Assembly (NCBI GenBank): GCA_009885805.1
Contig: VFJZ01000011.1
Coordinates: forward strand, 1 to 33,050
Origin: Actinomycetota bacterium
GTDB taxonomy: Bacteria > Actinomycetota > Thermoleophilia > Gaiellales > F1-60-MAGs149
DNA length: 33,050 nt
Reading direction: 5' to 3'
The notes under the pieces were generated by a model. That model did not search any database, was not told the origin of the DNA, and was given only the letters and a program-made list of their open reading frames with translations. The position numbers and the translations under genes were made by a program. This document shows, in pieces, positions 2,486 to 29,562 of this stretch. Within the stretch, counting starts at the first letter, position 1, and every line of letters begins with the position of its first letter.

Positions 2486-2828
2486 GCTGCGGCTGCACCT
2501 GGTCCTAGCAGCGGTCCCGGCTGTCTGCCGTGGTCCCCAGCCGAGCGTGACCTCGTGGCCTGGGGCTTGCAGCGGTTTGGTGCGCCCATACCGCGAAACG
2601 GAACACACGGCCGGAAGTCCGCCTCGATCCGGCGACGTAGACCACGACCCGTCACGCTCTGTCCCGCGTTGGATAGCTCCCGGTCGGCGGCCGTGCTGGC
2701 CGGTAGCATGACGGCATGCCCGCTGTCCCCATCGCCCGCGAGCGAGAGATGGATCACCACCCGCCTCACAGGCGACCGGTGGCCATTCAGGGCGCGTTCC
2801 GGGCCGAACCAGCGATGTGGAGCTAGCC
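2486..2828. other. Divergent intergenic region between transposase unit and hsdMSR
   Basis: No convincing coding sequence is visible on either strand: the frames that stay open here lack conserved-looking motifs and are rich in R/P/S. It must hold the promoters for both divergent units. I found no -35/-10 pair with acceptable spacing: TTGGAT at 2669 and TAGCAT at 2704 are 29 bases apart. No terminal inverted repeat of the element could be identified by eye. Confidence 0.5.
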
Positions 2829-4439
2829 GTGGCGCGGAGCAAGAAGCAGGAGGAGGCGAAAGGCCTCGAGGCGGCGTTGTGGGAGTCCGCGGACCGCCTC
2901 CGCTCGAACATGGACGCGGCCGAGTACAAGCACGTCGTGCTCGGCTTGATCTTTGTGAAGTACGTCTCCGACGTCTTCGCCCGCCGCCAGGGCGAGCTCG
3001 CGGCACTCGTCGACGACCCGGACTCCGACTACTTCATGCCGAGCGAGGCGGCGAAGCGGGCGATCCTCGAGTCGCGCGACGAGTACACCGCTGAGGGCGT
3101 GTTCTGGGTGCCGGAGGGCCATCGCTGGGATGATCTTCGCAACAACGCGAAGCAGCTCGACATCGGCACGCGGATCGACGCGGCGATGGACGCGATCGAG
3201 AGGGACAACCCGGACCTGAAGGGCGTGCTGCCGAAGAACTACGCGCGCCGCGAGCTGACGCCGACGACGCTCGGCGGGCTGATCGACACCTTCTCACGTG
3301 AGGACCTGGCGGCGCAGGAGCACGAGGACCTCGATGTTCTCGGTCGTGTGTTCGAGTACATGGTGAGCCGGTTCGCGAGCGCGGAGGGGAAGAACGGCGG
3401 CGAGTTCTACACGCCGCGCTCGGTGGTGAAGCTGATGGTCGACATGCTCGAGCCGTTCAACGGCCGCGTGTATGACCCGGCGATGGGAAGCGGCGGCATG
3501 TTCGTCCAGGCCGACCGGTTCATCAAGGCGCACGGCGGTGTGCGCAACGACATCTCCGTGTTCGGGCAGGAGATGAACCCGACGACGTGGCGTCTCGCGA
3601 AGATGAACCTGGCGCTGCGCGGGATCGACGCGAACCTCGCGCCGCAGTGGGGCGACACCTTCGCGAACGACCTGCACCCGGACCTGCGCGCCGATTTCGT
3701 GCTCGCGAACCCGCCGTTCAACATCTCTGACTGGGGCGGCGAGCACCTGCGCGACGACCCGCGCTGGAAGTACGGCGCGCCGCCGGTCGGCAACGCGAAC
3801 TTCGCGTGGATCCAGCACATGCTCCAGCACCTCGCCCCGACCGGGACGATGGCAACGGTGCTCGCGAACGGCAGCCTCTCATCGAAGACGTCCGGTGAGG
3901 GCGAGATCCGCACCGCCCTCGTCGAGGCCGACCTGGTCGAGTGCCTCGTCGCGATGCCGAGCCAGCTGTTCTACGCGACCGGCATCCCGGTCTGCCTGTG
4001 GTTCCTCACCAAGGACAAGACCGACCGCGCCGTCAAGAGCGAGCGCGCGCAGCGCAACCGTACCGGCGAGGTGCTGTTCATCGACGCGCGTCAGCTCGGC
4101 GCGATGGCCACGCGCACGGTTCGTGAGCTCTCCGACGCCGACATCGCCCGGATCGCCGACACCTATCACGCCTGGCGCGGCGAGCCTGACGTCGATCGCT
4201 ACGAAGACGTCCCCGGCTTCTGTGCGAGCGTGACCCTCGATTCCGTCCGCGAGCACGGGCACGTCCTCACGCCCGGCCGCTACGTCGGCAGCGAGGAGGC
4301 CGATGAAGACAGCGAGCCTCTCGACCAGAAGATCGCGCGGCTCACCGCCGAGATCAGGGACGGGTTTGTGGAGCGAGCGATTCTTCAGGAGGCCGTCCTC
4401 GCGGTGCTCGACGTTCTCGAGGCCCCGAGTGGTGACTGA
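2829..4439 (+). CDS. hsdM: Type I restriction-modification, DNA methyltransferase subunit HsdM
   Basis: N6-adenine methyltransferase subunit; with HsdS it methylates the recognition sequence, and with HsdR it forms the restriction complex. The N-terminal helical HsdM_N domain (about 10-150; [20 protein letters not shown]) is followed by the catalytic N6_Mtase domain. [16 protein letters not shown] precedes the SAM-binding motif I DPAMGSGG (216-223), and the catalytic motif is NPPF (294-297). The length of 536 aa is normal for the family. I chose GTG 2829 over ATG 2817 because GGAG at 2819-2822 is well spaced before it, whereas the upstream ATG has no ribosome binding site and adds only MELA. 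It overlaps hsdS by 8 bases. The gene looks intact. Confidence 0.95.
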
Positions 4440-5580
4440 GCCTTGGCCGTGCGTCCGTCTCGGGGACTGCGTCGACCTGCTTTCGGGGTTCGCCTTCGCC
4501 AGCAGTGACTACTGCGAACCAGTCGACGGCGTTCGTCTCCTCAGGGGGGACAACGTCGTGCAGCGGGGGCTCAGGTGGAGTGGGGCGAAGCACTGGCCAG
4601 CTACTCGCCGTTCGGAGGCCGCTGCGTACGAGCTTCGCGCCGGCGATGTCGTCGTCGCGATGGATCGTCCCTGGATTGAAGCGGGCCTGAAGGTCGCGGC
4701 GCTCCGGGCCGATGACGTCCCCGCCCTTCTCGTTCAGCGAGTCTCACGGCTCCGGGCCCAGGCCGACCTCGACCAACAGTTCCTCGCGTACGTTCTCTAT
4801 GGGAGTGCATTCGAACAGCACGTTCTTCGGGTTCAGACCGGCACCGCCGTGCCTCACATCAGCGGGGGGCAGATCCGAGAGTTCGTGTTCGCTCTCCCAC
4901 CGTTCGAGGAGCAGCGGCGGATCGCGGGGGTTCTGGGATCGCTCGACGACCTGATCGAAACCAACCGTCGACTGATGAAGAGCCTCGACGGCCTTGGCGC
5001 GGCCCTCTTCCTCGCAGCGTGGGATGGTGAGGAAACTTGTCCGCTCGAGTCCCTTGGCCGCATCACCATGGGGCAATCTCCCCCCGGGAGCACGTACAAC
5101 GAGGTGTGCGACGGACTACCCTTCTACCAGGGCGTGCGCGACTTCGGGGATCGCTATCCGACGCCTCGCGTGTTCTGCTCCGCTCCGACCCGAACCGCGG
5201 CTTCTGACGACATTCTGATCGCCGTCCGCGCTCCGATCGGCGACACGAACGTCGCCGTCGAACCCTGTGCCATTGGCCGAGGTCTGGCGGCGTTGACACC
5301 AGTCCGGCCAGGGCTCGCGTTGCGCGCACTGAGGGCAACGCCTACGACATGGTCGGCGTACGAGGGGTCGGGCACGGTCTTCTCGTCGATCAGCGGCCCG
5401 GACTTGCGGAAAGCGCGGGTGCCCGCAGTCTTCGATGATCACCTGGAACCACTGCTCCGTACGCTCGATGCGCAGCATGGGGCGTGTGCCGAGGAGGCGA
5501 CGTCTCTCCGCGTGATCCGTGACGAACTGCTCCCGCTTCTCCTCTCCGGGCGGGTCAGGGTTCGCGAGGTGGCGGCGTGA
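4432..5580 (+). CDS. hsdS: Type I restriction-modification, specificity subunit HsdS
   Basis: Recognises the bipartite target through two target-recognition domains (TRDs). TRD1 (about 1-165) begins [18 protein letters not shown] and ends in the conserved helix region [23 protein letters not shown]2 (about 200-335) begins [17 protein letters not shown] and ends in a second helical spacer running to [13 protein letters not shown]. The two central/C-terminal helices set the spacing between half-sites. At 382 aa it is at the usual size. GTG 4432 lies inside the last codons of hsdM, so translation is coupled. The two TRDs are clearly dissimilar, predicting an asymmetric bipartite site; the sequence recognised cannot be predicted. 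Confidence 0.93.
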
Positions 5581-8500
5581 GCCCGCCGATCACTGAGGCT
5601 GATCTTGAGGACCTGGTGCTCGAGGACCTCGCGGGCGAGCGTTGGCAGGTCGCCTACGGCCCGGACATCGCGCCGGGCGAGCCAGCCGCGGAGCGCGCCG
5701 ACTACCGGGAGGTCGTGCTGGTCGACCGGCTCCGCGCGGCGGTTGCGCGGTTGAACCCGTCGCTGCCGCCGGACGTCGTCGAGGAGGCGGTGAAGACCGT
5801 TCTGCGTTCGGAGTCACAGTCGCTGATGTCGGAGAACTGGCGCGCGTATCGTCTGCTCACGGCGGGCGTGCCGGTGCAGTACCACGCGGCTGACGGCTCG
5901 GTGCGCGAGGTCCGGGCACGGCTGGTGGACTGGGTGGATGTGGACGCGAACGACTTCGTCGCGGTGAACCAGTTCACGGTCATCGGACACGTGAAGCGCG
6001 AGCGTCGTCCGGACGTGGTGCTGTTCGTGAACGGTCTGCCGCTGGTGCTGATGGAGCTGAAGCGGCCCGGGGAGAAGAACGCGACGTTGAAGGGCGCGTT
6101 CAACCAGGTCGCGACGTACCGGGCGCAGATTCCGGATCTGTTCACCTGGAACCAGGTGACGGTGATCTCCGATGGCGTGCAGGCGCGGGCCGGGACGTTC
6201 ACGGCGCAGTGGGAGCACTACGCGCCGTGGAAGACGATCGATGGGTCGCGCGTCGAGGCGGGAGGGGTGCCGCAGGTCGAGGTGCTGGTGCGCGGGATGT
6301 TCAACCGGGCGCGGCTGCTTGACCTGGTGCGGAGCTTCGTGGTGTTCACCTCGGACGCGGGGGTGCTGTCGAAGAAGCTTGCGAAGTACCACCAGTATTG
6401 GGCGGTGAACAAGGCCGTGCAGTGCACGGTGGCGGCGGTCAACGGCGACGGCCGGGCGGGCGTCGTCTGGCACACGCAGGGGTCGGGCAAGTCGCTTGAG
6501 ATGGAGTGGTACGCCGGCAAGGTGATGCGTCACGCGGCGCTCGAGAACCCGACGATCGTCGTCTTGACGGACCGTAACGACCTCGACGACCAACTGTTCG
6601 ACGACACCTTCGCGGCCTCGCTGCCGGGCGCGCCGCTACCGGAGCCGCCGGTACAGGCCGGCAGCCGCGACGAGCTGAAAGCGCTGCTTGACCGGCGTCA
6701 GTCGGGCGGGATCGTGTTCTCGACGATCCAGAAGTTCGGGCTCTCGAAGGAGGAGAAGGACGCCGGCACCGCGTTCCCGACGCTGTCGGAACGGTCGAAC
6801 ATCGTCGTGATGGTCGACGAGGCGCACCGCTCGAACTACGACTTCGTCGACGGCTTCGCCCGGCACCTGCGTGACGGCCTGCCGAACGCGACGTACATCG
6901 GGTTCACGGGCACGCCGATCGAGTCGCAGGACAAGTCCACGCGGCAGGTGTTCGGCGACTACATCGACGTCTACGACCTGACGCAGTCGGTCGCCGACGG
7001 CGCGACGGTGAAGGTGTACTACGAGCCGCGCCTGGCACGTGTCAAGCTGCCGAGCGAAGCCCTCGGCCGGCTCGACTCGGCATTCGCCGACGCGACGTCC
7101 GGCACCGAGGATGATGCGCGGGAGCGGTTGAAGAGCCGTTGGGCGCAGGTCGAGGCGGTCGTCGGCTCGGAGAGTCGGATCGCGGAGCTCGCCGAGGACA
7201 TCGTCGCGCACTGGGAGGCTCGTCGCGAGGCGCTCGCGGGCAAGGCGCTCATCGTCGCGATGTCGCGGCGGATCGCCGTCGCCCTCTACGACGCGATCGC
7301 CCTGCTCCGGCCGGAGTGGGCGAGCGATGATGACGCCTCGGGGGTGATGAAGGTCGTGATCACCGGGTCGGCAGCGGACGAGTCCGCGATGCAGCCTCAC
7401 ATCCGCTCGAAGGAGGGTTTGCGTGCGTTGAAGTCCCGCGCGAAGGACTCTACTGATCCGCTCGAGCTCGTGATCGTGCGCGACATGTGGCTGACCGGGT
7501 TTGACTCGCCGTCGCTGCACACGATGTACGTCGACAAGCCGATGCGTGGCGCGAACCTGATGCAGGCGATCGCTCGCGTCAACCGCACGTTCAAGGACAA
7601 GCCCGCCGGCCTCGTCGTCGACTACCTCGGCATCGCCGAGGACCTGAAGGCGGCGCTTGCGGACTACACGGCCCGCGACCAGGAGAACGACGGGCTCGGT
7701 CAGGACCTTCGTGATCAGGCGATCCCGGCGCTGGTGAGCAAGCACGAGGTCGTCTGCACGATCCTGACCGGCTACGACTGGCGTGCGGGCCTCTCAAGCG
7801 GCGCCGCGAAGGCGTTCCTGCATACCCTCACCGGCGCCGTCGAGTACCTGATCTCCCACCACCCCGGCACCGGCGAGGCCATCTGCAGCAAGGACCAGCC
7901 CTGCCTGAAGTGCCGGTTCCTCGCCCAGACGCGCGACCTCGTCTCGCTGTACACGATCTGCGTTCCGTCGCCGGAGGCGCTCGCGATCCGCGACGACGTC
8001 GCGTTCTTCGAGGCCGTCAGGGGGCAGATCAGCAAGATCGAGGGCACCGACCGCCGCAGCGGCGACCCGAACGCGGTCCTCGACACGGCGATCAAGCAGA
8101 TCGTGTCTGACGCGATGACCGGCACCGGCGTGATCGACATCTACGCCGAAGCGGGGATCGAACGTCCCGACCTGTCGCTGATCGACGAGGAGTTCGTTCA
8201 GAAGTTCAAGACCAGCACGACTCCGAACCTGCAGATCGAGATGCTCAGGCGACTGCTCAGCGACGAGGTGCGCCGTGTCGGCGCGCGGAACATCGTCACC
8301 GGCCGGCAGTTCTCCGAGCTGCTCGAGCAGTCGATCCTGCGATACCAGAACCGCACCCTCGACGCCGCCCAGGTCGTCGCGGAGCTGGTCGCGCTCGCCG
8401 AGTCCCTCAAGGCCGAGAGCGACCGTGGTGCGAAGCTCGGACTCTCCGACGACGAGCTCGCCTTCTACGACGCGATCCGCACCAACGACAGCGCGATCAT

Positions 8501-8723
8501 GGAGCTCGGCGACGACGTGCTGAAGGCGATGGCGCAGATGCTCGTCCACATCGTCCGTCGTGACGCGAAGACGGACTGGTCGGTGAAGGAGCAGGTGCGT
8601 GCGAAGCTTCGCGCCACCATCAAGCGGCTGCTGCTGAAGTACGGCTATCCGCCGGACAAGGAAGAGAAGGCGACGCAGCTCATTCTCGAGCAGGCCGAGG
8701 CGATCGCGGCGGACGCGGCCTGA
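5577..8723 (+). CDS. hsdR: Type I restriction endonuclease, motor/nuclease subunit HsdR
   Basis: A translocating ATPase and nuclease that cuts unmodified DNA at a distance. The N-terminal HSDR_N nuclease fold has a PD-(D/E)xK site: D146 (PDVVLFVNG) and E160-x-K162 ([11 protein letters not shown]). The SF2 helicase core has Walker A GSGKS (302-306), DEAH (414-417), motif [11 protein letters not shown] and motif [12 protein letters not shown] helical C-terminal domain, rich in charged residues, would dock on the methyltransferase. Length 1048 aa is typical. GTG 5577 overlaps the hsdS stop (GTGA). All key motifs are present, so the complex should be active. Confidence 0.95.
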
Positions 8724-17489: not shown

Positions 17490-18755
17490 ATGGCAGTCGA
17501 AACGGTCGAGGCGCTCGTCGTCGGCGCGGGGCAGGCCGGTATCGCCGCCAGCGAGCACTTGAGCGCCTGCGGCGTTCAGCACCTCGTCCTCGAACGCCAC
17601 CGGATCGCGGAGCGCTGGCGTTCGGAGCGCTGGGACTCCCTGGTCGCGAACGGCCCGGCGTGGCATGACCGGTTCCCAGGGCTCGAGTTCACCGACGTCG
17701 ACCCGGACGCGTTCGCCTCGAAGGAGCGCGTCGCGGACTACTTCGTCGCCTACGCCGAGGAGATCGCGGCCCCGATCCGGTGCGGCGTCGAGGTCACCTC
17801 CGTCCGGCGGAACGCCGGCCGGCCCGGACTCCGCGCCGAGACGTCGGGCGGGCCGATCGACGCCACCTACGTGATCGCCGCGACCGGCCCGTTCCAGCAG
17901 CCGGTGATTCCTTCCGTCGTCCCGGCCGACGCGGGGCTCGTGCAGCTCCACTCGAGTGGCTACCGAAACCCGGATCAGCTGCCGGAGGGCGCCGTGCTCG
18001 TCGTCGGCGCGGGGTCGTCCGGGATGCAGATCGCCGACGAGCTCATGGAGGCGGGACGCCGGGTGTTCCTGTCGGTCGGCCCCCACGATCGGCCGCCGCG
18101 AAGCTACCGGGGGCGCGACTTCGTCTGGTGGCTCGGTGTGCTCGGGATGTGGGACGCCGAGACGCCGCCGCAGGGGGCCGAGCACGTGACGATCGTCGTC
18201 AGTGGCGCGGGCGGCGGCCGGACCGTCGACTTCCGCGATCTCGCTGCCCTCGGCATGGTCCTGCTCGGTCGCACGCTCTCCCACGACGACGGTGCGCTGC
18301 GGCTGGCGCCGGACCTCGCCGGCAACATCGCGAAGGGCGACGCGAACTACCTGGCGCTACTCGAGGAGGCCGACGCGTACGTCGCGCGCAACGGCCTCGA
18401 CCTTCCGCCCGAGCCGGAGGCGCACCGCTTCGGGTCGCTCCCGGCCTGCGTGACCGACCCGATCGTCGACCTCGACCTCGCGGGCGCCGGTATCGCGTCG
18501 ATCATCTGGGCGACGGGTTTCAGGGTCGACTACGGCTGGTTGCAGGTCGACGCGTTCGACGAACGGGGCAGGCCGCGGCACCGGCGCGGCGTGTCGTCCG
18601 AGCCGGGCGTCTACTTCCTCGGGCTGCCGTGGCTCTCACGACGCGGGTCGAGCTTCATCTGGGGCGTCTGGCACGACGCCAGGCACGTCGCCGATCACAT
18701 CGCGACGCAGCGCGGCTACCTCGCCTACGGGGAGCACGCGAGCGGGTCGGCGTAG
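17490..18755 (+). CDS. Flavin-containing monooxygenase / Baeyer-Villiger-like NAD(P)/FAD oxidoreductase
   Basis: A 421-aa two-dinucleotide-binding flavoprotein. FAD fold: LVVGAGQAGIAASEHLSACG (10-29). Then VLERHRIAERWRSERWDSLV, where the RW...R pattern is typical of the FMO/CzcO-like group, and VADYFVAYAEEIAAPIRCGV. NADP fold: VLVVGAGSSGMQIADELMEA (about 170-190). The C-terminal ATG loop is IIWATGFRVDYGWL, and the FMO end is YFLGLPWLSRRGSSFIWGV. GAGGAGG about 5 bases before ATG 17490 supports the start, ten bases after the MaoC stop. It may prepare the substrate for the thiolase/MaoC steps by oxygenation; that is inference from the operon. Confidence 0.87.
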   Translation: MAVETVEALVVGAGQAGIAASEHLSACGVQHLVLERHRIAERWRSERWDSLVANGPAWHDRFPGLEFTDVDPDAFASKERVADYFVAYAEEIAAPIRCGVEVTSVRRNAGRPGLRAETSGGPIDATYVIAATGPFQQPVIPSVVPADAGLVQLHSSGYRNPDQLPEGAVLVVGAGSSGMQIADELMEAGRRVFLSVGPHDRPPRSYRGRDFVWWLGVLGMWDAETPPQGAEHVTIVVSGAGGGRTVDFRDLAALGMVLLGRTLSHDDGALRLAPDLAGNIAKGDANYLALLEEADAYVARNGLDLPPEPEAHRFGSLPACVTDPIVDLDLAGAGIASIIWATGFRVDYGWLQVDAFDERGRPRHRRGVSSEPGVYFLGLPWLSRRGSSFIWGVWHDARHVADHIATQRGYLAYGEHASGSA

Positions 18756-20743: not shown

Positions 20744-20768
20744 GATCTCAGATCTTGGATCTGAGATC
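20744..20768. promoter_or_regulatory. Perfect 11-bp inverted repeat, probable operator
   Basis: GATCTCAGATC (20744-20754), TTG, then GATCTGAGATC (20758-20768): an exact dyad with a 3-base spacer, itself built of nested GATC/AGATC elements. AT-richer than its surroundings, it lies at the predicted transcription start and 13 bases before the ATG of the isochorismatase-like gene. This is the position and symmetry expected of a dimeric repressor (TetR, GntR or MarR type) operator. As RNA it could also form a stable 11-bp hairpin just ahead of the ribosome binding site AAGGAG. No regulator gene is adjacent. Confidence 0.7.
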
Positions 20769-20781
20769 CGAAGGAGCAGAG

Positions 20782-21414
20782 ATGGGCGAGACACAGTACT
20801 TCGACCCGCATGCCTGGGCCCTCGTGCCCGGCGCCACGGCGCACGTCGTGATCGACGACCAGAACGACTTCCTGCACCCCGACGGCTGGTACGCGACGCA
20901 CGGCGTCGACGTCTCGCATATGCAGCGCGTGATCGAGCCGACGAAGGCGCTGAACGCCGCCTGTCGCGCGGCGGGCGTGCCGATCATCTGGACGCGGCAC
21001 GGCACGCGCGGAGTGGCCGACGCCGGCCCGTTCGTGGACAAGCGCGTCCTGATTCGCGAGGGCGGTCTGCGGCAACGGACGTGGGGCTACGAGCTCCTCG
21101 ACGAGCTCGAGCCGCATGCCGACGACTGGTACGTCGAAAAAACGCGCCTCTCCGCCTTCTTCAACACGAACCTCGACACGATCCTGCGCGCGCTCGGTAC
21201 GCAGACGCTCATCATCTCCGGCGTGCTCACGAATCAGTGCGTGGGTGCGACGACGAAGGACGCGCTCTTCCGCGACTACCGGCCGATCGTCGTCGAGGAG
21301 GCGGTTGGCACCGCGACGCCGTACCTCCACGGTCCGGCGATCGAGATGATCCGCGTCGGCTGGGGCCAGGTGAACACGCTCGCCGAGACGCTCGCGGAGC
21401 TGCGCGCGCTATGA
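20782..21414 (+). CDS. Isochorismatase-family cysteine hydrolase (RutB/nicotinamidase-like)
   Basis: A 210-aa hydrolase. The catalytic triad is readable: D25 in HVVIDDQNDFLHPDGW, K120 in WYVEKTRLSAFFNT, and C153 in ISGVLTNQCVGATTKDA, with a cis-peptide-like GVLTN turn before the Cys. Family members cleave amides such as ureidoacrylate (RutB), N-carbamoylsarcosine and nicotinamide. AAGGAG 6 bases upstream fixes ATG 20782; a TTG upstream would lie inside the palindrome. Its stop overlaps the next ATG (ATGA). Next to an LLM monooxygenase and a hydantoinase-like enzyme it probably hydrolyses a carbamoyl or linear amide intermediate. Confidence 0.88.
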   Translation: MGETQYFDPHAWALVPGATAHVVIDDQNDFLHPDGWYATHGVDVSHMQRVIEPTKALNAACRAAGVPIIWTRHGTRGVADAGPFVDKRVLIREGGLRQRTWGYELLDELEPHADDWYVEKTRLSAFFNTNLDTILRALGTQTLIISGVLTNQCVGATTKDALFRDYRPIVVEEAVGTATPYLHGPAIEMIRVGWGQVNTLAETLAELRAL

Positions 21415-22442
21415 CCACCCTCGGCGCCCAGTTCACGGCCGAGCGCTTCGACGAGTGCATCGCCTCGGTGGAGGCGGCCGAGGACGCCGGCTACAGCCAC
21501 GCCTGGTTCGTCGACTCGCAGATCCTCTGGGAGGACTGCTACGTCTACATGACGACGGCCCTGGCGCAGACGCGCCGGATCACGCTCGGCACGGCGGTCA
21601 CGAATCCGTCCACGCGCCACGTGACGACGACCGCGAGCATCTACGGCACGCTCGCGAAGCTTTACCCGGACCGCCTCGAGCTCGGCATCGGGCGCGGTGA
21701 CAGCGCGGTGCGCTCGATGGGCCTGAAGCCCGTGAAGACGGCCGTTCTGCGCGACACGATCCCGGTGCTGCGAGACCTCCTCGCAGGCGGCACGGTCGCG
21801 ATGAACGGCATCGACGTCCACCTGCCCTGGCTCGCGGACGGCGCGCGCGTCCCGATCATGATGGCGGCGACCGGACCGAGGAACCTGCGCGCCGCCGGCG
21901 AGCTCGCCGACCGGGTGATGCTCTACGTCGGCGTCGACCCCGCGGCGCTCGAGTGGGCGATGGGCCACGTGCGCGCGGGCGCCGCTGCGGCGGGCCGTGA
22001 CCCGGACGCGGTCCGCTTCTCGCTTCTCACCGCGATGTGGGTGTCGGACGACCAGGAGGCGGCGTGGAACGCCTGCCGCTGGGCGCCGGCCGCGTGTGCG
22101 AATCACATCGCCGACACGATCCGCCACAATCCCGATCACGGCATGCCCGAGGTGATGACGAGACTCCCCGCCTCGCGCGACGCCTACGACTACTACGGCG
22201 GACACCTCAAGTCCGACGCCGGTCACACGTCGTACCTGACCGGCGAACTGCTCGACGACTTCACGATCGCGGGGAGCGCCGACAAGGTGAGAGCCAAGGT
22301 GCAGGAGCTTGCGGCGCTCGGGATCGACGAGATCTCCTGCGCTTATCACAACGGCACGTTCGAGCAGATGGCGACGGTCGGCCGCGAGGTCATCGACCCG
22401 CTCGGCCTCGCGCCGGCAACGACTCCGGAGGTCACCTCATGA
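21411..22442 (+). CDS. LLM-class flavin- or F420-dependent oxidoreductase
   Basis: A 343-aa luciferase-like TIM barrel. FDECIASVEAAEDAGYSHAW and FVDSQILWEDCYVYMTTALA open the barrel. RITLGTAVTNPSTRHVTTTA is the LGT...NP-x-x-R-H strand common in F420-dependent members, PDRLELGIGRGDSAVRSMGL is the glycine-rich phosphate region, and VPIMMAATGPRNLRAAGELA is the central strand. Sequence does not decide between FMNH2 and F420. It is translationally coupled to genes on both sides by ATGA overlaps (21411, 22439). In analogy with RutA it could open a heterocyclic ring whose product goes to the hydrolase partners. That role is inferred from context. Confidence 0.88.
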   Translation: MTTLGAQFTAERFDECIASVEAAEDAGYSHAWFVDSQILWEDCYVYMTTALAQTRRITLGTAVTNPSTRHVTTTASIYGTLAKLYPDRLELGIGRGDSAVRSMGLKPVKTAVLRDTIPVLRDLLAGGTVAMNGIDVHLPWLADGARVPIMMAATGPRNLRAAGELADRVMLYVGVDPAALEWAMGHVRAGAAAAGRDPDAVRFSLLTAMWVSDDQEAAWNACRWAPAACANHIADTIRHNPDHGMPEVMTRLPASRDAYDYYGGHLKSDAGHTSYLTGELLDDFTIAGSADKVRAKVQELAALGIDEISCAYHNGTFEQMATVGREVIDPLGLAPATTPEVTS

Positions 22443-25400
22443 AGCGCATCGGCGTCGACGTCGGCGGCACGTTCACGGATCTGATCCTCGTCGACGAGGA
22501 GGCCGGCAGGGTCACCGTCGACAAGATCGCCTCCACGCCGGACGACCCGGCGCGAGGCGTCGTCGAGGGCATCGAGCGTCTCTGCCGCAAGGCCGGTGTG
22601 ACGCTCGCCGAGGTCGACAACCTCCTCCACGGCACGACCGTCGCGACGAACATCACGCTGACCCACACGGGCGCCGAGGTCGGGATGATCACGACCGAGG
22701 GCTTCCGCGACATCCTGCACATCGCGCGGCACAAGAAGCCGCTCAACTTCTCGCTGCAGCAGGAGTTGCCGTGGCAGTCGCGGCCGCTCGTCAAGCGCCG
22801 CCACCGGCTGACGGTGCCCGAGCGCATCACGGTGCCGGACGGCGAGGTGCTCGTCCCGCTCGACGAGGACGCGGTCCGCGACCGCGTGCGGCAGCTGAAG
22901 GCGGCCGGCGTCGAGAGCGTCGCGGTCTGCTTCCTGCACTCCTATCTGAACCCTGCGCACGAGCAGCGGGTCAAGGAGATCCTGGTCGAGGAGTTCCCCG
23001 AGGCGTTCCTCTCGATCTCGAACGAGGTGCTGCCGCTCTACCGCGAGTTCGAGCGCTTCTCCACCGTCGCGCTGAACGCGTACGTCGGCCCGAAGGTGTC
23101 GCGTTACCTGGAGCGGTTCGACGCGGCGATGCGCGCGGCGGGCTTCCGCCACGGCGTGCAGCTGATGCAGTCGTCCGGCGGGATGGCGACGGTCGAGTCG
23201 GCGTCGACGCGGCCCGTGAACATGCTCATGTCGGGGCCGGTCGCGGGCCTGATCGGCGGGATCTGGGCGGGCCGCGCCGCCGGCTTCGACAATGTCGTCA
23301 CGCTCGACATCGGCGGCACCTCGGCCGACATCGGCGTCGCCGCCGGCGGGCAGCTGCGGATGCGGCACCTGCTCGACACGCGGATCGGCGACTACCAGGC
23401 GATGGTGCCGATGGTCGACATCGACACGATCGGTGCCGGCGGCGGCTCGATCGCGTACGTCGACCAGGGCGGGGTCTTCCGCGTCGGCCCGCAGTCGGCG
23501 GGCGCGGATCCCGGCCCGGCCTGTTACGGCCGCGGCGGCGTCCTGCCCACCTCGACCGACGCGCAGCTCGCCCTCGGCCGCCTACGCGACGATCGCGGCC
23601 TCCTCGGCGGCGGCATGACGCTGGACCGGAGCCTCGCCGAGCGGGCCGTGCAGACCCTCGCCGACGAGCTCGGCACGAGTCTCGAGGCGGCGGCGCTCGG
23701 CGCGCTGCAGGTGCAGAAGTACGGCATGACGCAGGCGATCGAGCTGAACTCCGTGCGCCGCGGCTACGACCCGCGCGAGTTCACCCTGGTCGCGGCGGGC
23801 GGCGCCGGCCCGCTGTTCGCATGCGACATCGCGCTCGAGCTCGAGATCGCGCGCGTGCTGGTGCCGCCGCACCCCGGGATCATCGCGGCCACCGGCCTGC
23901 TCGCCACCGATCTCCAGCACGAGTTCGTCGCGACGGAGCGCCACGCGTTGAAGGCTCTCGACACGGCCCGGGTCGACGCGCGCTACGCCGAACTCGTCGC
24001 GCAGGCGACCGCCCAGCTCGACGCCGACGCCGTGCCGCAGGAGCGCCGACTCATCCGCCGCCTCGCCGACTGCCGGTACTCCGGGCAGGGCTACGAGGTG
24101 CGCACCGAGGTGCCCGCCGGCGCCGTCGACGCCGCCTGGGTGGAGGAGCTGAAGGAGCGCTTCCACACCGCACACGAGGCCGAGTACGGGCACCGCTTCG
24201 ATGCGCCGATCGAGATCATCAACATCCGCGTCGTCGGTATCGGTCGCGTCGACGAGCTGCAGGCTGCCGCGATCGAGCGCGGCACCGGCGATCCCTCCGG
24301 CGCGGTGACGCTTGAGCGCGAGGTCGTGTTCGACGTCGACGGCGTCGCCGAGCGGCATCTGACGCCGTTCTACGAGCGCGAGGGTCTCCGTGCCGGCGAC
24401 CGCTTCACGGGCCCGGCGATCGTCGAGCAGTACGACACGACGACCGTGATCCCCCCGGGCCTCGTCGCAGAGATCGATGCGGTCGGCAACATCGTGATCG
24501 ACTGCACCGTTCCGCCGCGCTCGGCGGCGTCGCGCGGCAGCTCGCTGTCAACACCGATCCTGATGCGCGTCGTCGGCGGCGCCTTCGCGGCGATCGCGAA
24601 GGAGATGGCGGGCGTCCTGTACCGGATGAGCTACTCGTCGATCATCCGCGAGTCGGAGGACCTCGGCGCGGGCATCTTCGACGCCGAGGGCAACAACCTC
24701 GCCGAGTCCGACTCGACGCCGATGTTCATGGGCGCGATGCCGAAGATCGTGAAGAACGTCATCGCCCGGCTCGGCGACGACATCCACGAGGGCGACATCA
24801 TCCTCCACAACGACCCGTACGGCGGCGCGACGCACTCGCCCGACGTCGCGATCGTGATGCCTATCTTTGTCGACGGCCGGATCGTCGGCTACTCCGGCGC
24901 CTCCGCCCACGTGCTCGACATCGGCGGCGCCTACCCGGGTCTTGCGATCGACCTCGTTGACAACTGGTCCGAGGGGAACATCTACCGCGCGGTCAAGATC
25001 CAGGACAAGGGGGTCTGGCAGGAGGGGCTGTGGAAGCACATCCTCGAGAACGTCCGGACGCCTTCGTTCAACAACGGCGACATCCGGGCGATGATCGCCG
25101 CCTGCGAGCTCGCGAAGCGACGTTTCGCCGATCTGGTCGTCCGCTACGGCGAGGAGACGATCTCCTCGATCTCGCAGGCGTGGATCGATTACTCCGAGTC
25201 GATGCTCCGCAAGGAGATCGCGAAGGTGCCGGACGGCCGCTACGAGACCGAGGTCGGCTGGCTCGACGACGACGGCGTCACTCGCGGGAAGAAGCTGCCC
25301 GTGCAGGTTGCGGTCATCATCGAGGGTGACGAGATCACGTTCGATCTGACCGGGTCGAGCGACGAGGTGCCGACGGGCTACAACTGCCCGTACGAGGGCA

Positions 25401-26275
25401 CGACCGTCTCCGCGATGAGCTTCATCACGCGCATGATCTTCCTCGACGAGGCGACGTTCCCCGTCTTCGTGCCGCAGAACGAGGGCATGCTCGCGCCGGT
25501 GAACGTGATCGCGCCGAAGGGGTCGATCTTCAACCCGAACTACCCGCGCGCGTGCTTCGCCCGTTTCTGCCAGGTGCAGCGCGCCGTCGACCTCGCGCTG
25601 CGGGCGCTGGCGCCGGTGATCCCGAACCAGATCACCGCCGGCAACTCCGCGCACCTCGGCTTTCTCGCGTACTCCGGGTTCGACAAGGAGGAGGGCGAGT
25701 ACTGGGTGTACCTGGAGGTGGATGAGGGCTCCTACGGCGGCCGCCCGGGCCGCGACGGCCTCGACTCCGTCGACTGCCTGATCGCGAACACCCGCAACAA
25801 CCCGATCGAGGAGCTCGAGTGGCGCTTCCCGATGCGCACCGAGCGTTACGAGCTGCGCGACGACACCTGCTCCGCCGGACAGTGGCGCGGCGGCATCGGG
25901 ATGGTGCGCGTCAACCGCTTCCTCGTCGACACCATCGTCACCTGCGAGGGTGACCGCTACGAGTCCGACCCGCCGTGGGGCATCTTCGGCGGCCACGAGG
26001 GCACGCTCGGCCACGGCAAGGTGACCGCACCGGACGGCAGCGTCGAGATGTGGCCGGCGAAGTTCACCGGCAAGGTGCTTCACGCGGGGTCGACGATCGA
26101 GCTTGCGGCGCCGAGCTCCGGCGGGTATGGCGAGCCGCTGCTGCGCGACCCCGCAGCCGTCCTGAGCGACGTCCTCGACGGGTTCACGACCGCCGAGCTG
26201 GCGGAGCGCGACTACGGCGTCGTCATCCGCGACGGCCGCCTCGACGATGCAGCGACCGTGGCGCGGCGCTCGTGA
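22439..26275 (+). CDS. Fused HyuA-HyuB ATP-dependent hydantoinase / 5-oxoprolinase-like enzyme
   Basis: A single frame of 1278 aa. HyuA part (about 1-690): MKRIGVDVGGTFTDLILVDE is the ATPase phosphate loop, LLHGTTVATNITLTHTGAEV follows, and VVTLDIGGTSADIGVAAGG is the second ASKHA motif. HyuB part (from about 705): ILMRVVGGAFAAIAKEMAGV, IRESEDLGAGIFDAEGNNLA, DIILHNDPYGGATHSPDVAI. Separate HyuA and HyuB subunits are usual in bacteria; fusion of this length occurs in eukaryotic 5-oxoprolinase. The family uses ATP to open cyclic amides such as N-methylhydantoin or 5-oxoproline. GGAGG 7 bases upstream and the ATGA overlap support ATG 22439. Both halves look complete, so it should be active. Confidence 0.92.
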   Translation: MKRIGVDVGGTFTDLILVDEEAGRVTVDKIASTPDDPARGVVEGIERLCRKAGVTLAEVDNLLHGTTVATNITLTHTGAEVGMITTEGFRDILHIARHKKPLNFSLQQELPWQSRPLVKRRHRLTVPERITVPDGEVLVPLDEDAVRDRVRQLKAAGVESVAVCFLHSYLNPAHEQRVKEILVEEFPEAFLSISNEVLPLYREFERFSTVALNAYVGPKVSRYLERFDAAMRAAGFRHGVQLMQSSGGMATVESASTRPVNMLMSGPVAGLIGGIWAGRAAGFDNVVTLDIGGTSADIGVAAGGQLRMRHLLDTRIGDYQAMVPMVDIDTIGAGGGSIAYVDQGGVFRVGPQSAGADPGPACYGRGGVLPTSTDAQLALGRLRDDRGLLGGGMTLDRSLAERAVQTLADELGTSLEAAALGALQVQKYGMTQAIELNSVRRGYDPREFTLVAAGGAGPLFACDIALELEIARVLVPPHPGIIAATGLLATDLQHEFVATERHALKALDTARVDARYAELVAQATAQLDADAVPQERRLIRRLADCRYSGQGYEVRTEVPAGAVDAAWVEELKERFHTAHEAEYGHRFDAPIEIINIRVVGIGRVDELQAAAIERGTGDPSGAVTLEREVVFDVDGVAERHLTPFYEREGLRAGDRFTGPAIVEQYDTTTVIPPGLVAEIDAVGNIVIDCTVPPRSAASRGSSLSTPILMRVVGGAFAAIAKEMAGVLYRMSYSSIIRESEDLGAGIFDAEGNNLAESDSTPMFMGAMPKIVKNVIARLGDDIHEGDIILHNDPYGGATHSPDVAIVMPIFVDGRIVGYSGASAHVLDIGGAYPGLAIDLVDNWSEGNIYRAVKIQDKGVWQEGLWKHILENVRTPSFNNGDIRAMIAACELAKRRFADLVVRYGEETISSISQAWIDYSESMLRKEIAKVPDGRYETEVGWLDDDGVTRGKKLPVQVAVIIEGDEITFDLTGSSDEVPTGYNCPYEGTTVSAMSFITRMIFLDEATFPVFVPQNEGMLAPVNVIAPKGSIFNPNYPRACFARFCQVQRAVDLALRALAPVIPNQITAGNSAHLGFLAYSGFDKEEGEYWVYLEVDEGSYGGRPGRDGLDSVDCLIANTRNNPIEELEWRFPMRTERYELRDDTCSAGQWRGGIGMVRVNRFLVDTIVTCEGDRYESDPPWGIFGGHEGTLGHGKVTAPDGSVEMWPAKFTGKVLHAGSTIELAAPSSGGYGEPLLRDPAAVLSDVLDGFTTAELAERDYGVVIRDGRLDDAATVARRS

Positions 26276-28005: not shown

Positions 28006-29562
28006 ATGCTGAATGAGCGAGACGCCGCTTCGCGCGGCACCGTCGTCATCGGCCGCCGTGGGTTTCTGCTCGGCGCGGCCGGTGGCCTCCTGACCCTGAG
28101 CGGCTGCGGGTTCGGCGGCGACCATGCGATGGACGGGGAGCACGGGATGTCCGGGATGTCGGGCATGGGCGGTCCGGCGACGACCGGGGGCAGCGGCGCG
28201 CCGATGGTGCCGGTGCCCACGGGCCCGGCACCGACCGGGCCGATCGGCGTCACCACGACGCTGCGTGCCGCGCCGACGGTGGTGCAGATCGGCGGCCGCC
28301 AGGTCGAGACGTGGGCCTACAACGACACCCTTGACCTGCCCACGCTCCGGCTGCGGGCAGGCGAGCGGGTTCAGGCCACGCTCTCGAACGCGCTGCCGGA
28401 GGACACGACGATCCACTGGCACGGCGTCGCCCTCCGGAACGCAATGGACGGCCTGCCGGGCATGACGCAGGACCCGGTGCGGCCCGGCGAGTCCTTCCTG
28501 TACGACTTCGTCGCGCCCGACCCCGGGACGTACTTTTTCCACCCGCATCTGGGCACGCAGGCTGACCGTGGCCTGCTCGGCGTGCTGGTCGTCGAGGATC
28601 CGGCCGAGCCGTTCGTGTACGACGCGGACGTGGTCGTGACGCTCGACGACTGGCTTGACGGCATCGACGGCCGCACCCCCGACGCGCAGTTCCGCGAGTT
28701 GCAGCAGGGCGGCGACATGCACGCCGGCCACGCGATGCCCGGGATGGTCGCGACCGACACGCCGCTCGGGTCCGACGACGGCGGCGACGTCGACTATCCG
28801 CTCCACCTGATCAACGGCCGGCCGCCGGAGGATCCCGCGACGATCCGCGTCGAGGCCGGGCAGCGCGTACGGCTGCGGCTTGTCAACGCCGCCGCCGACA
28901 CCGCTTACCGCGTCGCGATCGACGGCCACGCCATGCGCGTCACGCACGCCGACGGCTGGCCGGTCGAGCCGGTCGAGGTCGACGCCCTCGTGATCGGTAT
29001 GGGCGAGCGCTACGACGTGCTCGTCGACGTCACGGCCGGCGCCTGGCAGCTGTACGCCGCCTGCGAGGGAAAGCCCGGCGCCACACGGGCCATTCTCCGC
29101 ACCACCGGATCGTCGGCGCCGACTCCGTCCACGGAGGCGCGTCCCAGGGGACTAACCGGACGGCTCCTCGACGAGGCGACGCTCGTGCCGACCGAGGCGG
29201 CCCGGCTCGCGCCGGGAACGCCGAATCGGGAGATCGAGGTGCTCCTGACCGGCGGGATGGGCGGCTACGACTGGGGCATCGGCGACGGCCGCTACCCGGA
29301 TACGGCCCCGATCAGTCTCGCCCGCGACGAGCGCGTTCGTCTGCTGCTGACGAACGACGCGATGATGTGGCACCCGATGCACCTGCACGGCCACACGTTC
29401 GCCGTTGCCCCGACCGGGGTGCGGCGCGACACGGTGAAGGTCAGGCCGATGAGTACGGTCGTCATCGACGTCGTCGCCGACAACCCGGGCCGCTGGATGC
29501 TGCACTGCCACAACGCGTACCACCTCGCCGCCGGCATGGCGGCCGACGTCATGGTGGCGTGA
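28006..29562 (+). CDS. Secreted multicopper oxidase lipoprotein
   Basis: 518 aa with a signal that has twin arginines and a lipobox: RRGFLLGAAGGLLTLSGC (R17-R18, lipidated C34). A Met/Gly/His-rich linker (DHAMDGEHGMSGMSGMGG) may hold copper. All four copper motifs are present: HWHG (137-140), HPHLG (179-183), HPMHLHGH (456-463) and HCHNAYHLAAGM (500-511) with the T1 Cys501, His506 and axial Met511. It would oxidise Cu(I) or phenolic substrates at the outer membrane face. GAGGAG about 7 bases before ATG 28006. It overlaps the convergent DUF3817-like gene by 14 bases. Likely function is copper tolerance (CueO/CopA-like); laccase-like activity is the alternative. Confidence 0.92.
   Translation: MLNERDAASRGTVVIGRRGFLLGAAGGLLTLSGCGFGGDHAMDGEHGMSGMSGMGGPATTGGSGAPMVPVPTGPAPTGPIGVTTTLRAAPTVVQIGGRQVETWAYNDTLDLPTLRLRAGERVQATLSNALPEDTTIHWHGVALRNAMDGLPGMTQDPVRPGESFLYDFVAPDPGTYFFHPHLGTQADRGLLGVLVVEDPAEPFVYDADVVVTLDDWLDGIDGRTPDAQFRELQQGGDMHAGHAMPGMVATDTPLGSDDGGDVDYPLHLINGRPPEDPATIRVEAGQRVRLRLVNAAADTAYRVAIDGHAMRVTHADGWPVEPVEVDALVIGMGERYDVLVDVTAGAWQLYAACEGKPGATRAILRTTGSSAPTPSTEARPRGLTGRLLDEATLVPTEAARLAPGTPNREIEVLLTGGMGGYDWGIGDGRYPDTAPISLARDERVRLLLTNDAMMWHPMHLHGHTFAVAPTGVRRDTVKVRPMSTVVIDVVADNPGRWMLHCHNAYHLAAGMAADVMVA

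What the first reader, a model, noticed from the sequence alone, without database searches (positions are those of the whole stretch)
20782..26275. Isochorismatase + LLM monooxygenase + fused HyuAB: a possible uncharacterised ring-opening pathway
The three genes are joined by ATGA overlaps, so stoichiometric co-translation is likely. An LLM oxygenase with an isochorismatase-like amidase is the RutA/RutB pair of pyrimidine breakdown. Adding an ATP-dependent hydantoinase/oxoprolinase suggests attack on a cyclic imide, hydantoin, lactam or purine breakdown product. I know of no described pathway with this exact trio; the substrate is unknown.
Basis: partly seen in the sequence, partly recalled or inferred. 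Interest (0 to 1): 0.6.

Follow-up and report, generated by a model that had tools for sequence, protein, structure and literature searches.

The report
F420-linked hydantoin-type ring-opening operon
Three overlapping genes in an actinobacterial genome look like an assembly line that uses the rare cofactor F420 plus ATP to open a nitrogen-containing ring, probably a methylated hydantoin, and salvage its nitrogen; the set recurs in other bacteria, but the F420 step and the exact compound have not been described.

Summary
In detail: isochorismatase-fold amidase (20782-21414), luciferase-like enzyme (21411-22442) and fused HyuAB (22439-26275) are joined by two ATGA overlaps. The module recurs in other Actinomycetota and in an alphaproteobacterial MAG, with shuffled order, usually with a fourth gene: a sarcosine/dimethylglycine-dehydrogenase-like enzyme with a folate (GCV_T) domain, once with formyl-THF deformylase. 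The HyuAB is about 64% identical to the PDB 'N-methylhydantoinase' 7hk5 and belongs to a fused family otherwise found beside N-carbamoylsarcosine-amidase-like genes. The amidase is nearest RutB and biuret/triuret hydrolases. The luciferase-like protein is not RutA: it belongs to the F420-dependent Mer/TIGR03842-like class. In one genome its homologue is followed by an FO-synthase gene of F420 synthesis, and every trio genome tested has F420-synthesis genes. This LLM clade sits next to HyuAB of several lineages or the amidase; 0 of 14 sister LLMs do. Best reading: a cyclic-ureide (N-methylhydantoin-type) catabolic operon with an undescribed F420 hydride-transfer step at the ring, then ATP-driven ring opening, decarbamoylation and folate-dependent N-demethylation. 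Substrate and direction of the F420 step are inferred. New variant of a known kind.

The parts
20782..21414 (+). Isochorismatase-fold (RutB/BiuH-like) amidase, predicted N-carbamoyl (ureide) amidohydrolase; predicted triad D25, K120, C153
   Evidence: Pfam PF00857; best solved relatives RutB, biuret and triuret hydrolase by sequence and fold; invariant D25/K120/C153 in 10 homologues
21411..22442 (+). Luciferase-like, predicted F420-dependent hydride transferase (TIGR03842/Mer-like clade)
   Evidence: clade linked to HyuAB/amidase; FO synthase gene beside a homologue
22439..26275 (+). Fused HyuA-HyuB ATP-dependent hydantoinase, N-methylhydantoinase-like; phosphate motifs DVGGTFTD and DIGGT present
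21411..21414 (+). ATGA stop/start overlap, amidase to LLM
22439..22442 (+). ATGA stop/start overlap, LLM to HyuAB
20744..20768 (.). Perfect 11-nt inverted repeat with a 3-nt spacer directly upstream of the operon's Shine-Dalgarno-like AAGGAG (20771-20776); candidate operator or leader hairpin
   Evidence: only copy in the genome with up to 3 mismatches; hairpin -16.9 kcal/mol; function not tested

Best explanation
A catabolic operon for a cyclic ureide of the N-methylhydantoin type. (1) The LLM enzyme uses coenzyme F420 for a hydride transfer on the ring or its immediate precursor, giving the hydantoin that HyuAB accepts; this is either F420H2-dependent saturation of an unsaturated ring or F420-dependent oxidation of a cyclic hemiaminal to the dione, and I lean slightly to reduction. 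(2) Fused HyuAB opens the ring with ATP to an N-carbamoyl-(N-methyl) amino acid. (3) The RutB-like amidase removes the carbamoyl group as NH3 + CO2. (4) In most homologous loci, though not within this window, a dimethylglycine/sarcosine-dehydrogenase-like flavoprotein with a GCV_T domain demethylates the product to methylene-THF. Shown: gene order, families, conservation of the module, F420-type class of the LLM, F420-synthesis genes in the hosts. Inferred: each reaction, the substrate, and the direction of step 1.
For: HyuAB aligns end to end with PDB 7hk5 'N-methylhydantoinase', 64.6% over HyuA, inside a fused family whose cultured members lie beside CSHase-like amidases. Amidase nearest RutB, BiuH and TrtA, all ureide hydrolases. 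Loci with the amidase also carry DAO+GCV_T enzymes: L013, L069, L067, L068, L079, L078, L015; PurU follows HyuAB in L069. LLM clade: HyuAB or the amidase within 1.5 kb in 6 of 8 loci from the LLM searches, against 0 of 14 sister LLMs (Fisher about 4e-4 by hand); it also adjoins divergent HyuAB lineages in L110 and L111. A CofG-CofH FO synthase, both domains over cut-off, follows the LLM in L111. CofH over cut-off in all 5 genomes tested, including the alphaproteobacterium G400; CofD in the window's genome. Precedent from others: a putative F420 'luciferase family' yanthine reductase in Chloroflexota urate clusters with hydantoinase HyuA (PMC12507026).
Against: No biochemistry. L079 has LLM + amidase + demethylase without HyuAB nearby, and L110/L111 have LLM + HyuAB without the amidase, so the steps are separable. 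No demethylase, transporter or creatinine deaminase gene adjoins the trio in this window. L080 and L081 carry the amidase alone. The trio-type HyuABs are not a separate clade from those with other partners (quick tree).
Confidence: 0.55

Rival explanations
1. It is simply the known creatinine/N-methylhydantoin route (N-methylhydantoin to N-carbamoylsarcosine to sarcosine) with a different amidase, and the LLM is an accessory redox enzyme that is not on the ring pathway.
For: HyuAB family and sarcosine-type demethylase neighbours; the same HyuAB family lies beside CSHase-like genes in Micrococcaceae; pathway described (PMC8864220, PMC6742649).
Against: The window's own genome already has two other HyuAB + CSHase-like clusters (L070, L072). 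The LLM clade follows HyuAB lineages only 35-41% identical (L110, L111), which points to a shared reaction.
Confidence: 0.25
2. The LLM is a C1 enzyme: an F420-dependent methylene-tetrahydrofolate reductase or dehydrogenase handling the methyl group released by the demethylase.
For: Closest solved relatives are Mer; GCV_T and PurU neighbours in several loci.
Against: Mer's catalytic Glu6 is Gln or His in most members and Tyr in L111; jMer E6Q keeps 0.4% of kcat (PMC11094777). The LLM adjoins HyuAB in loci without a demethylase in the retrieved stretch (L109, L110, L111).
Confidence: 0.08
3. One reading: an FMN/O2-dependent RutA-like oxygenase plus RutB-like amidase, with oxygenative ring opening followed by HyuAB on a second ring or by-product.
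For: The amidase's best named relative is RutB.
Against: The LLM has no RutA match and is of the F420 class. The amidase scores 118.6 bits against a RutB cut-off of 378.
Confidence: 0.07
4. Different substrate class: lactam, 5-oxoproline or another cyclic amide, with an amidase acting on a primary amide rather than a ureide.
For: The HyuA/B superfamily includes caprolactamase and oxoprolinase; CapA model 584 bits, below its cut-off of 1000.
Against: Far closer to the N-methylhydantoinase entry (1884 bits) than to caprolactamase (394 bits); amidase nearest ureide hydrolases; urease genes beside a close homologue in L010 and L012.
Confidence: 0.05

Closest known systems
Creatinine / N-methylhydantoin pathway (ATP-dependent N-methylhydantoinase + N-carbamoylsarcosine amidase + sarcosine oxidation)
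   Same: HyuAB family (64.6% to 7hk5 over HyuA), an isochorismatase-fold ureide amidase, an N-demethylating flavoprotein in most homologous loci
   Different: The amidase is RutB/BiuH-like and only about 31% identical to the CSHase-like genes; an F420-class LLM is present; demethylase of DAO-GCV_T type
Rut pathway (RutA/RutB)
   Same: Isochorismatase-fold amidase nearest RutB, next to a luciferase-like protein
   Different: The LLM is of the F420/Mer class rather than RutA; an ATP-dependent hydantoinase is present; no other rut gene recognised in the window
Reductive pyrimidine and reductive urate degradation (reductase, then cyclic-amide hydrolase, then carbamoylase); Chloroflexota F420-LLM variant (PMC12507026)
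   Same: Same logic if the LLM reduces: hydride transfer, ring hydrolysis, ureide cleavage; a putative F420-LLM beside a hydantoinase
   Different: Here the hydrolase is the ATP-dependent HyuAB (Hydantoinase_A/B), not an amidohydrolase, and the carbamoylase is of isochorismatase fold
HyuABC of Pseudomonas sp. NS671
   Same: ATP-dependent HyuAB plus an N-carbamoyl amino acid hydrolase (described in PMC8453981)
   Different: Fused HyuAB, unrelated amidase, extra LLM
Mer (F420-dependent methylene-H4MPT reductase)
   Same: Closest solved fold and profile match of the LLM; Asp96 equivalent and G/A-V cis-peptide region kept
   Different: Catalytic Glu6 replaced by Gln/His; no H4MPT context

Membership tests
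N-methylhydantoinase / ATP-dependent hydantoinase | HyuA and HyuB domains with both phosphate motifs (DxGGTxTD, DxGGT) | tested here: met
   motifs DVGGTFTD and DIGGT read in the translation
N-methylhydantoinase / ATP-dependent hydantoinase | Full-length similarity to the deposited N-methylhydantoinase | tested here: met
   7hk5, residues 1-1276, 1884 bits; the deposited name is not itself proof of substrate
N-methylhydantoinase / ATP-dependent hydantoinase | ATP-dependent hydrolysis of N-methylhydantoin | not testable with these tools
   needs an enzyme assay
RutA | Match to the RutA equivalog model | tested here: not met
   RutA absent from the 25 NCBIfam matches
RutB | Score over the RutB equivalog cut-off | tested here: not met
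   118.6 against 377.95 bits
Isochorismatase-fold cysteine amidases | Asp-Lys-Cys triad | tested here: met
   D25, K120 and C153 invariant in 10 homologues
N-carbamoylsarcosine amidase (CSHase) | Close similarity to solved CSHase | tested here: not met
   1nba 54.8 bits against RutB 97.4; separate cluster, about 31% identity
F420-dependent LLM (LLHT) | Closest to F420 rather than FMN enzymes | tested here: met
   the top 24 fold matches are all F420 enzymes; sequence profile likewise
F420-dependent LLM (LLHT) | Host can make F420 | tested here: met
   CofD over cut-off, CofH over cut-off
F420-dependent LLM (LLHT) | F420 binding and turnover | not testable with these tools
   needs purified protein
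TIGR03842 (F420_CPS_4043) | Score over the family cut-off | tested here: not met
   260.9 against 295.45 bits
Mer | Catalytic Glu6 | tested here: not met
   Gln/His at that profile position

The most novel reading that the evidence does not exclude
A previously undescribed F420-dependent cyclic-ureide degradation pathway, in which an LLM hydride transferase acts on the ring (for example reducing an unsaturated N-methylated hydantoin, imidazolone or pyrimidine) ahead of ATP-dependent HyuAB and a RutB-like ureide amidase, shared by Actinomycetota and some Alphaproteobacteria and giving one reason why the latter make F420.
Probability: 0.4. Interest if true: 0.7.

Novelty: new variant of a known kind. 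Interest (0 to 1): 0.55.

Why it matters
Most F420-dependent LLM enzymes have no assigned role, and why Proteobacteria make F420 is listed as an open question (PMC8498797). This module ties one LLM clade to a defined chemistry, ATP-driven ring opening of cyclic ureides plus ureide amidase plus N-demethylation, and gives a small set of substrates to assay. It would also add a reason not to annotate such operons as Rut-like or as plain creatinine degradation.

Tried and rejected
RutA/RutB analogy: rejected for the LLM. Mer-like C1 role: weakened by loss of Glu6 and by loci without a demethylase. Plasmid records: HyuAB relatives all under 60% identity, no trio seen in the table. A random sample of 396 genomes of the phylum gave no second strong amidase homologue, so the module is rare; class-level sampling gave 4 of 399 at 60% or more, the window's genome included. 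Paper searches for the gene combination gave nothing. The careful HyuA tree did not finish; the quick tree was used. A first Pfam batch failed on a mis-set frame. First frames set for L015's amidase and LLM were off by one and corrected. The operator-like palindrome is not shared with the homologous loci.

Full report
Observation. The three reading frames are complete and overlap by ATGA at both junctions: amidase 20782-21414, LLM 21411-22442, fused HyuAB 22439-26275. Domain content is as stated. The neighbours in the window are unrelated to the trio: a type I restriction system, a glycerol-3-phosphate-dehydrogenase-like flavoprotein, a thiolase and a flavin oxidoreductase upstream; a multicopper oxidase downstream.

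Recurrence. Loci were fetched with HyuAB alone as query, with the amidase alone and with the LLM alone, so that each association could be read without bias from the other two. All three genes occur together in L013 (Solirubrobacterales MAG), L069 (complete genome of the same class), L067 (same family) and L015 (alphaproteobacterial MAG, in the order LLM-HyuAB-amidase). L068 has amidase, demethylase and LLM up to a contig edge; L079 (genome of the same class as the alphaproteobacterial MAG) has LLM, amidase and demethylase without HyuAB nearby; L078 has amidase and demethylase. The module is rare: 0 further strong amidase homologues in a phylum-wide sample of 396, 4 of 399 in the class including the window's genome, 5 of 385 in the class of the alphaproteobacterial MAG.

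The fourth partner. L013, L069, L067, L068, L078 and L079 carry a protein of about 820 aa that is similar to L013's DAO + FAO_M + GCV_T + GCV_T_C protein (dimethylglycine/sarcosine-dehydrogenase architecture), and L015 carries the start of one just after the amidase. In L069 HyuAB is followed by ACT + formyl transferase, the architecture of formyl-THF deformylase PurU. This points to an N-methyl amino acid as the product released by the amidase. The window's genome has such demethylase-like proteins elsewhere.

HyuAB. It matches 7hk5 'N-methylhydantoinase' over its whole length at 1884 bits; caprolactamase CapA reaches 394 bits. In the quick tree 7hk5 falls with Citricoccus and Enteractinococcus, whose HyuAB lies close to a CSHase-like amidase gene; the window's protein lies in the same fused family but outside that subgroup. 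The window's genome holds several further HyuA/B loci (16 matching places), two of them beside CSHase-like amidases (L070, L072).

Amidase. Sequence and fold place it nearest RutB, biuret hydrolase and triuret hydrolase, below the RutB and BiuH cut-offs. The triad D25, K120, C153 is invariant in ten homologues, which also share a GGLR..TW motif. A carbamoyl-nitrogen substrate is therefore likely; which one is not shown.

LLM. It is a member of a clade near TIGR03842 and Mer, not of RutA. Position 6 of Mer, the catalytic Glu whose change to Gln leaves 0.4% of kcat (PMC11094777), is Gln or His in most members. In L111 the LLM gene is followed 10 nt downstream by a fused CofG-CofH FO synthase with both domains over their cut-offs, a second copy in that genome. 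CofH is over cut-off in all five genomes tested, including the alphaproteobacterium G400, where CofD was not found. Linkage: among LLM-query loci, 6 of 8 members of the clade have HyuAB or the amidase within 1.5 kb (of the other two, L089/L109 has HyuAB 2.2 kb away and L091 ends at a contig edge), against 0 of 14 sister LLMs. The partner HyuABs in L110 and L111 are only 35-41% identical over HyuA to the window's, so the link is to the chemistry, not to one inherited block.

Mechanism. Steps 2-4 follow from established families: ATP-dependent hydantoin opening, ureide amidase, folate-linked N-demethylation. Step 1, an F420 hydride transfer at the ring, is inferred from the class of the LLM and its linkage. 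A published hint of the same idea is the putative F420 luciferase-family reductase in Chloroflexota urate clusters (PMC12507026). I cannot tell reduction from oxidation; I lean to reduction because the logic then matches reductive pyrimidine breakdown.

Related variation. In L010/L109 and L012 the same HyuAB family sits with urease genes and an MmgE/PrpD protein, L010 also with the LLM and L012 with an Asp/Glu/hydantoin-racemase-like protein, which suggests an alternative way of disposing of the ureide through urea. This is inference.

Limits. Several loci are in incomplete MAGs; statistics on linkage treat related genomes as independent; the Fisher value was worked by hand; the tree is a quick one; no activity has been shown for any protein of the trio type.

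Noticed in passing
window 20744-20768: Perfect 11-nt palindrome (GATCTCAGATC-TTG-GATCTGAGATC) just before the operon's ribosome-binding site; unique in the genome even with 3 mismatches, not shared by homologous operons.
   Followed up: partly
window 2817-8723: Type I restriction-modification operon: HsdM, HsdS (only one specificity domain matched), HsdR with HindI-like C-terminus.
   Followed up: no
L111 6388-9687 (-): A second FO synthase (CofG-CofH) gene directly behind an LLM and near HyuA/HyuB genes: cofactor synthesis inside a catabolic cluster.
   Followed up: partly
L010/L109, L012: Urease genes with MmgE/PrpD (L010, L012), an Asp/Glu/hydantoin-racemase-like protein (L012) and the same fused HyuAB family: a possible urea-forming variant of ureide breakdown.
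   Followed up: partly
window genome (16 matching places); L070, L072: Several further HyuA/HyuB loci in one 3.6-Mb genome, two beside CSHase-like amidases.
   Followed up: partly
L067 2389-2640 and 2635-2670: Fragment resembling the HyuA N-terminus upstream of the homologous operon, next to a GntR-FCD regulator gene and a 17-nt perfect palindrome.
   Followed up: no
window 17490-18755: Flavin-dependent oxidoreductase of the MSMEG_0569-like group, below its curated cut-off.
   Followed up: no
window 28006-29562: Multicopper oxidase related to copper-resistance CopA-type enzymes.
   Followed up: no
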